34,043 bases of DNA from a bacterium (GTDB taxonomy: Bacteria; Pseudomonadota; Gammaproteobacteria; Methylococcales; Methylomonadaceae), in NCBI GenBank assembly GCA_030591965.1, contig JAUVAA010000014.1, forward strand, positions 1-34,043. Reading direction: 5' to 3'. The notes beneath the pieces were generated by a model. The model was not told the origin of the DNA, ran no database searches, and saw only the letters and a list, made by a program, of their open reading frames with translations. Each line of letters begins with the position of its first letter. Position 1 is the first letter of the stretch. Both the position numbers and the translations under genes were made by a program. This document shows positions 30,071 to 33,444 of the stretch, piece after piece.

Positions 30071-31018
30071 CTAAAGCCCATTCATTTGCTCTTGCACCAA
30101 CGTCAATACCGCACTAAAAACATCCTGTTCTTCGGTATAAAAGCTGTGTGCATCAGTTTCACGGCGTAACCAAGTAAATTGCCGCTTAGCTAACTGTCGT
30201 GTCGCAATAATACCTGTTTCCTGCATTTCTTCAGCATTAATTTCACCTTCTAAATAAGACCATACCTGTCGATAGCCTACCGCTCGTACAGATGGCATTT
30301 GCACCGTTAAATCACCTCGCTGATATAGCGCCTCAACCTCAGCAACTAAACCCTGCTGCAACATTTGCTTAAAACGCAGTGCAATTTTCTCATGCAAAAC
30401 CGCCCTATCTCGCGGCGCAATAATCAGCTTAATTTTTTGATACGGAATTTCTTCGGCCTGCGCTTCAGCATGTAGCTGAGTCATCGACTTACCAGTCAAC
30501 TCGTACACCTCTAAAGCACGCTGAACACGCTGCGGATCATTCGGGTGAATGCGTACCGCGGCAACCGGATCAATTAATTGCAATTTAGCATGCATTGCCT
30601 CTTTGCCGATAGCTTGCGCCTGCGCATTAAGTTGTGCACGCACGGCATCATCGGCACTAGGCAGCTGAGCTAAGCCATGAAATAGGCCGTTAAAATAAAG
30701 CATTGTGCCACCGACCAATACAGGCAATTTACCCCGCGCCGTAATATCCGCCATTAATGCCAATGCTTGTCGCCTAAAAGCACCCGTAGAAAAACTTTCC
30801 GCAGGGTCTAAAATATCAATTAAATGATGCGGGATCCCCGCCCTTTCTTCTAAAGTCGGCTTAGCGGTGCCTATATCCATGCCTTTAAACACTAACACGG
30901 AATCAACACTAATGATTTCCGCATTTAATTTTTGCGCTAATTGCACCGACAAAGCAGTTTTACCGGAAGCCGTCGGCCCCATGAGAAAGATAGCGGGAGG
31001 GAGTGTAGTTTTCATCAT
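30071..31018 (-). CDS. miaA: tRNA dimethylallyltransferase
   Basis: Adds the dimethylallyl group to A37 of tRNAs that read UNN codons. The 315-residue product (E. coli 316) has the P-loop [15 protein letters not shown], the substrate motif [38 protein letters not shown] and [15 protein letters not shown]. The C-terminal part holds [16 protein letters not shown] and [10 protein letters not shown]. In most gammaproteobacteria miaA directly follows mutL and precedes hfq. Here a 539-bp RAYT relic separates it from mutL, and hfq is not the next gene. Confidence 0.97.
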
Positions 31019-31036
31019 TATTTAAGTAAACAGATA

Positions 31037-31575
31037 GGTTCGAATTTATTCGTACCCCAGTGCGCGAAATTTACAGCCATGCTGCATCCCATAAAGGGTA
31101 CTCACCAATTTTATGAGCAAGACCAGCTCGCAATATGGATTAGCGATAATATACCGCGCTGCACCTTGTATGTCCTCTTCTTACCGCAATGCATAGTCAT
31201 AATAAGCCTTCTGCCAAACCGTACCACTCCGTTTGAGATAGCAATTAACCCCATGTGCGCTGCGAGCTTTAAATCGTTGCGTAGTCTGCGCCAAAGTAAA
31301 AACATCATTAAGACCGAATAACCAGTGGACGAGGTCAGGCATAATCACCCATGCAAGAGACCTTAAAATACCTTCATCATGTAGCGCCTTCATTTCATAA
31401 ACAACAATCTTTGCACAGAAAAATCATGAAATAAAGGCTTACGCTGATGCAATACAGTGGTGATGAAATAAATTTGATTAGCTTGTGAGTAGCGACCTTT
31501 CTGTAAATCGTTATACGGCATTTTAAATCCGCCCCCTATAAATCACATCCGAACTGGTACGAATAAATTCGAACC
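31037..31575. mobile_element. Decayed RAYT element bounded by perfect 20-bp inverted repeats
   Basis: GGTTCGAATTTATTCGTACC (31037-31056) is repeated as an exact reverse complement at 31556-31575. Each end is itself an imperfect palindrome (GGT-CGAAT--ATTCG-ACC), which is the form of REP sequences. The 500 bases between hold a pseudogene of a REP-associated tyrosine transposase (Y1 family). The element sits between miaA and mutL, three bases from the mutL stop codon. I see no convincing target duplication. Confidence 0.88.
31071..31521 (-). pseudogene. RAYT (REP-associated Y1 transposase) pseudogene
   Basis: The minus strand encodes a RAYT in three pieces. From ATG at 31521 the first frame gives MPYNDLQKGRYSQANQIYFI and continues for 43 codons before a stop. 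A frameshift near 31400 moves to a frame with VYEMKALHDEG, LAWVIMPDLVHW, RFKARSAHGVN and VWQKAYYDYALR, which meets an in-frame TAA at 31181. The same frame goes on as EEDIQGAARYIIANPY. A second frameshift near 31131 leads to RAGLAHKIGEYPLWDAAWL and the stop at 31071. The HxH metal motif is also broken: PDHVH has become PDLVH. The gene cannot make an active transposase. Confidence 0.88.
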
Positions 31576-31578
31576 TCA

Positions 31579-33444
31579 TTACTGCCCACGCAAAAACAAT
31601 TTATCCAGCTCTTTTTTACTCAGTTCCACCCACGTTGGACGACCATGATTGCACTGACCACTGCGCTCGGTCTTTTCCATATCACGCAATAATACATTCA
31701 TTTCTGGCACCGTTAAGCGACGATTAGCACGTACCGAACCATGACAAGCAATAGTCGATAAAATTTCATTACAGCTTTGCTCAACACGCTGACTCATGCC
31801 ATGCTCAATAATATCCGCCAACACATCTTTCACTAATAAGGCGACATCAGTCCCCGATAACAAAGCGGGGATGGCACGAATAACAATCATCTCTTCAGCC
31901 ATACGATTCAACTCAAAACCCAAACTCATAAAAAATTCTTGCTGATCATCCGCTAAATCCGCCTCAGTGCTGTTGACCTGTACTTGTAAAGGCAGTAATA
32001 ACGGCTGTGAAGGCACAGAGCCTTGGTGATATTGAGTTTTAAATCGTTCATAGGTCACACGCTCATGTGCCGCATGAGCATCCACTAGAATGATGCCATT
32101 TTTAGTTTCCGTCAGAATATACACATCATGCAAATGCGCAACGGCATAACCTAATGGTGGCTCCAATTCGGTTTCGGTACTATTGATTGCTGGAACTCGC
32201 GGCTCTTGTATAACCGCTGAAACGCTAGGCGTAACTAATTTGGTATAAGCCTCAATCTGCGCATCAACATCCAAAGACAATGCCGATTGACGTGGCGCGG
32301 CAGACGGCTGATAACTTTGCCGTGGCACAGTAGGTTTAGCTTCAGTTGCTGTCGCGGGTAAGGGCTGGAAATCGACCACTTTTTGCACCGCAGGAGGCGT
32401 CATACCCATAGCACCTGACTCGACTTCCGGCTCAGACGCTTGCGGTCTGACATCCGCTAAAGAACGATGTAAGGCTTTAAATAAAAAGTCATGTACCGTA
32501 CGCCCTTCACGAAAGCGCACTTCTAATTTTTGCGGATGTGCATTAACATCAACAAAACTAGGATCCAACTCTAAATACAATACATAAACCGGATGCCGAC
32601 CATGATAAAGCACATCTTGATACGCCTGTTTAATCGCATGACTAACTAAACGGTCTTTCACTAAACGGCCATTAACATAAAAATACTGCATATCTTGCTG
32701 ACTACGTGAAAAAGTAGGCAAACCGACCCAACCATGCAAACGCATACCTGATGCAGAAAAATCCAGAGGCACAGAACTGTCTAAAAATGCAGAACCAAAA
32801 ATATGTGCAATACGCTGCTCTTGTTCCGCCTGTGTTTGAGCAATTTTAAAATTAAAAATTTCGCGCTGATTATGTTTTAACTCAAATGCCACGTCAAAAC
32901 GACTTAAAGCCATTCGCTTTAATAAAGTTTCAATATGCCCAAATTCAGTTTTATCACTTTTTAAGAATTTACGGCGCGCAGGTGTATTATAAAATAAATC
33001 ACACACCTCAATAGTTGTACCTAAGGGGTGTGGGTCAGGCTGCGGATCTAACTCCTCTTCCGTCCCATCGGCTTGCACGCGCCACGCGCACTCTTCACCG
33101 GCAACCCGCGAAATTAAAGTTAAACGAGAAACCGAACTAATACTAGGCAAAGCCTCACCACGAAAACCCATGGTCATGACCTCTTCTAAATCCTGTAAAG
33201 ATTGAATTTTACTGGTCGCATGGCGTGATAAAGCTAATGGTAAATCTTCTTTTTCGATACCACAACCATTATCTCTAATCTTAATTAAGCGCGCTCCACC
33301 CTGCTCCACTTCAACTAAAACGCTATTTGATCCTGCATCAAAACAGTTTTCCACCAACTCTTTAATCACCGAAGCCGGCCGTTCGACCACTTCGCCAGCG
33401 GCAATTTGATTAACTAATTGAGGCGGTAAAGCATGAATGCGCAT
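31579..33444 (-). CDS. mutL: DNA mismatch repair protein MutL
   Basis: GHKL ATPase that links MutS mismatch recognition to strand incision. The 621-residue product (E. coli 615) has the ATPase motifs in the N domain: IAAGEVVERPASVIKELVEN, DAGS, DNGCGI and TMGFRGEALPSI. FYNTPARRKFLK and YFYVNGRLV follow, then a Pro/Ala-rich linker (about 340-430) and the dimerisation domain. That domain contains DAHAAHERVTYE from residue 455, with ACHGSVRANRRLT and CNHGRPTWVEL further on. These fit the metal-binding set of MutL proteins with their own endonuclease, with Ala in place of Gln in the DQHA motif. No amiB is found upstream within the window. Confidence 0.96.
   Translation of the reverse strand: MRIHALPPQLVNQIAAGEVVERPASVIKELVENCFDAGSNSVLVEVEQGGARLIKIRDNGCGIEKEDLPLALSRHATSKIQSLQDLEEVMTMGFRGEALPSISSVSRLTLISRVAGEECAWRVQADGTEEELDPQPDPHPLGTTIEVCDLFYNTPARRKFLKSDKTEFGHIETLLKRMALSRFDVAFELKHNQREIFNFKIAQTQAEQEQRIAHIFGSAFLDSSVPLDFSASGMRLHGWVGLPTFSRSQQDMQYFYVNGRLVKDRLVSHAIKQAYQDVLYHGRHPVYVLYLELDPSFVDVNAHPQKLEVRFREGRTVHDFLFKALHRSLADVRPQASEPEVESGAMGMTPPAVQKVVDFQPLPATATEAKPTVPRQSYQPSAAPRQSALSLDVDAQIEAYTKLVTPSVSAVIQEPRVPAINSTETELEPPLGYAVAHLHDVYILTETKNGIILVDAHAAHERVTYERFKTQYHQGSVPSQPLLLPLQVQVNSTEADLADDQQEFFMSLGFELNRMAEEMIVIRAIPALLSGTDVALLVKDVLADIIEHGMSQRVEQSCNEILSTIACHGSVRANRRLTVPEMNVLLRDMEKTERSGQCNHGRPTWVELSKKELDKLFLRGQ

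What the first reader, a model, noticed from the sequence alone, without database searches (positions are those of the whole stretch)
31037..31575. REP-flanked RAYT relic inserted exactly between mutL and miaA
Perfect 20-bp inverted repeats, each a REP-like palindrome, bound 539 bp holding a RAYT pseudogene. One end lies three bases from the mutL stop. mutL and miaA are normally adjacent and cotranscribed, so the insertion may have separated their expression, or the REP hairpins may now act as a terminator or stabiliser in the operon.
Basis: partly seen in the sequence, partly recalled or inferred. Interest (0 to 1): 0.7.

Follow-up and report, generated by a model that had tools for sequence, protein, structure and literature searches.

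The report
Decayed REPtron between mutL and miaA
A dead copy of a small transposase-like gene, still bounded by a matching pair of short palindromes that recur elsewhere in this methane-eating bacterium, sits between two neighbouring housekeeping genes; it is a clear example of a known kind of element, caught in the middle of decay.

Summary
Window 31036-31576 is bounded by perfect 21-bp inverted repeats and holds a near-complete but broken RAYT gene (134 bits to the REP-associated tyrosine transposase model, cut-off 80): a decayed REPtron in a Methyloprofundus genome. The repeat recurs at 13 other sites within 3 mismatches, control 0; eight form four REPIN-like pairs. Intact RAYTs of this type in other Methylomonadaceae have a matching REP within 250 bp in 16 of 20 loci; none of 23 RAYT loci searched is beside mutL or miaA. 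A remnant of the insertion survives in G006, while G016, sister of G000 on flanking genes, has a 30-bp spacer: most simply one old insertion, lost in G016. The terminator idea fails. A transcript across the element could fold into a stem closed by the repeats, but this is only predicted. In relatives the same spacer holds other inserts. A new member of a known kind, of modest interest as a case of REPtron gain, decay and loss.

The parts
31036..31576 (-). Decayed REPtron: REP - RAYT pseudogene - inverted REP (541 bp)
   Evidence: Perfect 21-bp terminal inverted repeats; NF047646 REP_Tyr_transpos 134.4 bits over residues 8-144 of the read-through
31556..31576 (-). mutL-side REP; the four bases before the palindrome read TGAG, not GTAG
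31036..31056 (+). miaA-side REP, inverted relative to the RAYT sense strand; head reads ATAG
31071..31521 (-). RAYT pseudogene: two frameshifts (near 31414-31428 and 31129-31141), one in-frame stop (near 31177-31187), first His of the HuH motif lost (near 31325-31339)
   Evidence: three-frame translation, alignment to the intact G007 homologue, coordinates
31579..33444 (-). mutL (621 aa), upstream neighbour, open
   Evidence: open frame; name taken from the finding and from recall of the sequence, homologues in relatives
30071..31018 (-). miaA (315 aa), downstream neighbour, open
   Evidence: open frame; name taken from the finding and recall, homologues in 18 of 18 genus genomes

Best explanation
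This is a decayed REPtron. A RAYT gene bounded by two REPs with their heads facing outward landed directly after the mutL stop codon before G000, G016 and G006 diverged. Most likely the RAYT protein acted on single-stranded REP hairpins, moved REP/REPIN units around the genome, and moved at least this one REPtron as a REP-to-REP unit. The RAYT then died by frameshifts, a nonsense codon and loss of a metal-binding histidine. The remaining REPs and REPINs are orphans that are drifting away. In G006 most of the relic has been deleted; in G016 nearly all of it is gone. Shown: anatomy, family, repeats elsewhere, same-type REPs beside intact relatives, a like remnant in G006 at the same place, absence in G016. 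Inferred: one shared insertion, single-strand mechanism, movement as a unit, and that the relic now has no function in the operon.
For: Family: NF047646 134.4 bits, cut-off 80; the one PDB sequence matched at E 0.001 is TnpArep 4er8, E 7e-7. Repeats: 10 sites within 2 mismatches and 15 within 3 in G000, controls 0; four REP-linker-inverted REP pairs; 8 of the 13 other sites have GTAG directly before the palindrome by my reading. Same REP type beside intact RAYTs: 16 of 20 loci within 250 bp at 5 or fewer mismatches, 0 of 3 more distant RAYTs; 17 of 20 whole loci, 0 with the reversed pattern, 0 in each of 20 shuffled patterns. Insertion: none of those 23 RAYT loci has mutL or miaA in the up to 1.5 kb held on each side; the 20 fall into 11 neighbourhood groups. 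Like remnant in G006: same place, orientation and outer end, positions 413-541 of the element at 70%. G000+G016 together: 103 v 55 v 55, 30 v 12 v 6 and 49 v 20 v 19 sites in three flanking segments; tree support 100/100.
Against: Movement of the REPtron is not seen directly; transfer by recombination, or two separate insertions in G000 and G006, would leave similar traces. Next to the junction the first 300 bp of miaA do not resolve the quartet (6 v 5 v 5), though the last 300 of mutL do (11 v 1 v 3), so a short recombination is not excluded. The outer heads (TGAG, ATAG) are not GTAG. 4 of 20 intact relatives lack this REP within 250 bp, two of them with a flank cut short by a contig end. 5 of the 13 other sites in the genome lack GTAG. 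G000 is a draft (90.8% complete, 6.5% contamination), so an intact cognate RAYT could be missed.
Confidence: 0.9

Rival explanations
1. A degenerate ordinary IS200/IS605 insertion sequence rather than a RAYT.
For: Y1_Tnp Pfam match of 19.8 bits (cut-off 23) for the central piece; related catalytic fold (PMC8266576).
Against: The relic matches NF047646 at 134 bits and no IS200 model at E 0.01; the intact homologue in G007 scores 145 for NF047646 and 34 (cut-off 55) for IS200. The terminal palindromes recur as inverted pairs.
Confidence: 0.03
2. The remnant in G006 and the relic in G000 are two independent insertions at one hotspot, and G016 simply never had one.
For: The junction takes other inserts in related species; 5 of 30 chosen spacers elsewhere hold a GTAG-type hairpin v 0.6 expected, but three of the five share one sequence type and are not independent.
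Against: Same RAYT type, same orientation, same REP edge within a few bases of the mutL stop.
Confidence: 0.12
3. The relic has been kept because its inverted repeats now act on the mutL-miaA transcript, as a hairpin clamp or an RNase III-type processing site.
For: A 572-nt RNA folds at -171.5 kcal/mol, z -3.3, 0 of 100 shuffles as low, with the two arms paired; the interior alone has z +0.75. The arms are still identical although the RAYT has decayed.
Against: G006 has lost one arm and its other arm is altered; G016 has lost both. Local hairpins compete. No expression data.
Confidence: 0.1
4. The REP hairpins work as a transcription terminator between mutL and miaA.
For: Position directly after the mutL stop.
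Against: 0 terminator-like sites v a shuffle mean of 0.8; weak RNA hairpins without a T run.
Confidence: 0.03

Closest known systems
REPtron (RAYT/tnpA-REP gene with flanking REPs; PMC2817692, passages; PMC8266576, sections)
   Same: One RAYT gene between two inverted REPs close to its ends; cognate REPs and REP pairs elsewhere in the genome.
   Different: Gene is dead; heads are TGAG/ATAG; one REP each side with heads outward, whereas intact relatives vary: heads inward in some (such as G063, G007), heads outward in G085, REP pairs in others.
Pseudogenised RAYT with dwindling cognate REPs (PMC3686654, passages)
   Same: Frameshift and nonsense lesions in the RAYT, cognate REPs left in modest numbers; the paper proposes that REPs degrade once the RAYT is inactivated or lost, and reports a RAYT at a novel chromosomal site in three strains.
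   Different: Here relic, remnant and near-empty site can be compared at one junction in three species.
REPIN (PMC3116915, passages)
   Same: Four inverted pairs, 60-61 bp; 6 of the 8 arms have a GTAG outer head.
   Different: These pairs lie wholly or partly inside a longer repeat of about 160 bp with TAAGTACC/GGTACTTA ends in its better copies.
IS200/IS605 elements
   Same: Y1 transposase relationship, palindromic ends, no target duplication visible by eye at the outer edges.
   Different: Family model and REP association point to RAYT.

Membership tests
RAYT (REP-associated tyrosine transposase) | Matches the curated RAYT protein model | tested here: met
   NF047646 134.4 bits, cut-off 80, on the read-through of three frames
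RAYT (REP-associated tyrosine transposase) | Working gene: open frame, HuH motif, catalytic Tyr | tested here: not met
   First His of HuH replaced (PDLVHW, against PDHIHW in G007); frameshifts and stop: a pseudogene. The Tyr position was not examined.
[quoted passage not shown]
   Perfect 21-bp inverted arms, 34 and 14 bp from the gene ends
REP | Short palindrome, repeated in the genome | tested here: met
   13 further sites within 3 mismatches, control 0
REP | GTAG-type tetranucleotide 5' to the palindrome | tested here: inconclusive
   Met at 8 of 13 other sites by my reading; the element's own two heads are TGAG and ATAG.
REP | Cleaved as single strand by cognate RAYT | not testable with these tools
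   needs protein
REPIN | Two inverted REPs with a short spacer | tested here: met
   C163, C202, C88 and C115 pairs with starts 40-41 bp apart
IS200/IS605 insertion sequence | Matches IS200 transposase model over cut-off | tested here: not met
   no match for the relic at E 0.01; homologue 34.3 against cut-off 55
Intrinsic terminator | GC-rich stem followed by T run | tested here: not met
   0 found on either strand, 30900-31800

The most novel reading that the evidence does not exclude
The whole REPtron moved as a unit, REP to REP, into the mutL-miaA spacer, and was later lost almost without trace in G016. This would be evidence that RAYT genes themselves can transpose, where a 2021 paper says there is no evidence of tnpA-REP mobility (PMC8266576, introduction read).
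Probability: 0.35. Interest if true: 0.55.

Novelty: new member of a known kind. Interest (0 to 1): 0.3.

Why it matters
RAYTs are regarded as domesticated, vertically inherited genes (PMC8049555, passages) with no shown mobility of their own (PMC8266576). A site where the REPtron is a relic, a remnant and absent in three related species gives a case of gain, death and loss in relative order, with orphan REPs left behind. It also shows that the mutL-miaA junction in this genus has received varied DNA.

Tried and rejected
Terminator reading: rejected. Known structured RNA: no Rfam match at gathering score in the window, nor in five related loci, among them the G008 locus whose GNAT relic is interrupted. 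Plain IS200: rejected on family scores. Recombination of the whole mutL-miaA block between G000 and G006: not supported, both flanking genes favour G000+G016, though the first 300 bp of miaA are uninformative. An intact cognate RAYT in the own genome: nine Y1 matches listed (the relic is not among them); searched at up to 6 mismatches, the nine loci gave one site, 6 mismatches, in L023. Using the REP count as a measure of decline was dropped, because counts depend on distance from the query pattern. Dating the death of the RAYT by relative rate: 13 changes unique to G000 against 25 unique to G006 over 151 columns; the outgroup is distant, so this is only a hint. The hairpin scan of spacers did not flag the G006 remnant itself (L061 was among the 30), so it misses decayed REPs. 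Literature: no paper held has mutL, miaA and 'REP element' together or 'REP-associated tyrosine transposase' with Methylomonas; the six papers with 'repetitive extragenic palindromic' and methanotroph look unrelated from titles and abstract openings; Methyloprofundus with transposase gave three papers, seen in the listing only. Papers seen: PMC8266576 outline, introduction, part 1 of 2 of the discussion and its section on REPtron evolution; PMC3733652, PMC2817692, PMC3686654, PMC8049555 and PMC3116915 as passages.

Full report
What is there. Between mutL (31579-33444, minus) and miaA (30071-31018, minus) lies a 541-bp element, 31036-31576, closed by perfect 21-bp inverted repeats. Each arm is a short palindrome with one mismatch and folds weakly, but better than nearly all shuffles, as single-stranded DNA (3-6 of 200 shuffles as good). 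On the strand of mutL and miaA the interior reads, in three frames, as a RAYT from its start to its last codons. The central open frame alone gives a Y1_Tnp match of 19.8 bits, under the Pfam cut-off of 23. The read-through of the three pieces gives 134.4 bits to NF047646, REP-associated tyrosine transposase, cut-off 80, and one solved structure, TnpArep 4er8. Lesions are two frameshifts, one in-frame stop and loss of the first HuH histidine, while mutL and miaA next to it are open; so sequencing error is an unlikely cause.

The repeat elsewhere. In the own genome (G000, 223 contigs, 2.93 Mb) the 20-mer is found at 15 sites within 3 mismatches, two of them the element's ends, with 0 backward-control sites. 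Eight of the other 13 form four inverted pairs of 60-61 bp (C163, C202, C88, C115) and five are single in this list. Reading the flanks, 8 of the 13 have GTAG directly before the palindrome; the other five read GTAC, GCCC, CAAG, GTGG and no such motif. Among 18 genomes of the genus, 7 have a site within 2 mismatches: G000 10, G016 5, G010 2, G002 2, G013 2, G001 1, G006 1; controls 0 in all 18. In a sample of 301 genomes of the order, 61 have the GTAG-headed 23-mer within 3 mismatches; in the table I see the backward control hit in two, G003 and G026.

Cognate RAYTs. In a sample of 201 genomes of the family the closest intact homologue is in another genus (G054, 62%); within the genus it is G007 (56%). 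Of 20 same-type RAYT loci, 16 have a REP with the same core within 250 bp at 5 or fewer mismatches; G097, G129, G130 and G051 do not, and the flank of G129 and G051 is cut short on one side; the three more distant RAYTs tested (G002, G016, G001) have none. One further same-type row, G182:C162, had no locus and was left out. Over whole loci it is 17 of 20, against 0 for the reversed pattern and 0 in each of 20 shuffled patterns. None of the 23 loci shows mutL or miaA in the up to 1.5 kb held on each side. By shared neighbouring reading frames the 20 loci fall into 11 groups; short or cut flanks may overcount groups and shared domains may undercount them, but the gene clearly lives in several places. 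In the four-species clade around G000 no intact RAYT of this type was found: G016 has two at 50% and 48%, G010 only weak matches, G006 none at E 0.001.

History of the insertion. The junction could be read in 14 of the 18 genus genomes. Lengths from the last mutL codon to the aligned miaA start, stop codon included, are G012 2, G002 7, G014 11, G011 29, G016 30, G007 93, G013 94, G006 157, G005 171, G003 343, G000 563, G010 644, G009 778 and G001 1082. In the other four, mutL or the miaA start was not in reach. G006 keeps the mutL-side REP, altered, and the start of the RAYT, then almost nothing up to miaA; identity to the relic is 70% over the blast match and 66% over 152 aligned columns. The record L061 (Methyloprofundus isolate Kmv24) has the same spacer and a contig of the same length as the G006 contig, so I treat them as one genome. 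Flanking DNA places G000 with G016: 103 v 55 v 55 sites upstream, 30 v 12 v 6 in miaA, 49 v 20 v 19 in mutL; tree support 100/100. The order of G006 and G010 below that is open. The simplest history is one insertion before these species split, partial deletion in G006, near-complete loss in G016 and decay in G000. G010 carries a DUF3465 gene at the place. Two insertions at a hotspot remain possible.

Effect on the two genes. No terminator-like site lies in 30900-31800. The hairpins as RNA are weak. A transcript from the mutL end to miaA is predicted to close on the two arms (-171.5 kcal/mol, z -3.3), and this depends on the arms, since the interior alone has z +0.75. Whether such a transcript exists is unknown. 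mutL was found upstream of miaA in 68 of 80 fetched relatives, median spacer 37 bp; in the other 12 it was not found in the stretch held, which for some is cut by a contig end.

Known or new. PMC2817692 (passages) describes RAYTs always flanked by two inverted REPs. PMC3686654 (passages) describes pseudogenised RAYTs, the expected degradation of their REPs, and RAYTs at novel chromosomal sites in three strains. PMC3733652 (passages) reports that REPs between genes of one direction lie close to the 3' end of the upstream gene, as here. PMC8266576 (introduction, part of the discussion) states that there is no evidence of tnpA-REP mobility. The element is therefore a new member of a known kind. 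Its added value is that relic, remnant and near-empty site can be compared at one junction.

Noticed in passing
L030, L033, L034, L036, L039, L040, L042 (mutL-miaA spacers): The DNA between mutL and miaA, or directly before miaA, in this genus holds varied inserts: TacA1-like antitoxin (G003), GNAT pieces (G004, G008, where mutL was not in reach), HTH and Unstab_antitox (G009), DUF3465 (G010), a REP pair of another type seen by eye (G007), 1.08 kb with no Pfam match in the two frames scanned (G001).
   Followed up: partly
L009:800-972, L005, L006, L007, L193: REPINs in G000 and G016 lie inside a longer repeat of about 160 bp with TAAGTACC/GGTACTTA ends; whole or in pieces, 17 matches in G000 (some of them only the REP), 8 in G016, 1 each in G004 and G010, none in the other 14 of 18.
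   Followed up: partly
L188 (G000:C49:15059-15142): A copy of that longer repeat lacks the REPIN and about ten neighbouring bases: a possible empty site or a deletion.
   Followed up: partly
L021 and L158 (G000:C181): Another broken RAYT in the same genome, with REPs of a different type (GTGGGAGCGGCTTTAGCCGCGAT and variants).
   Followed up: no
L040 (G008, upstream of miaA): A GNAT relic is interrupted by a few hundred bases of structured-looking sequence; part resembles, by eye, DNA beside a RAYT in G002; no Rfam match at gathering score.
   Followed up: partly
L073, spacer before miaA: A GTAG-headed REP of the same type also sits in the mutL-miaA spacer of a Methylococcaceae MAG; 5 of 30 chosen spacers (of 68) have a GTAG-type hairpin, 0.6 expected, three of the five being one sequence type.
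   Followed up: no
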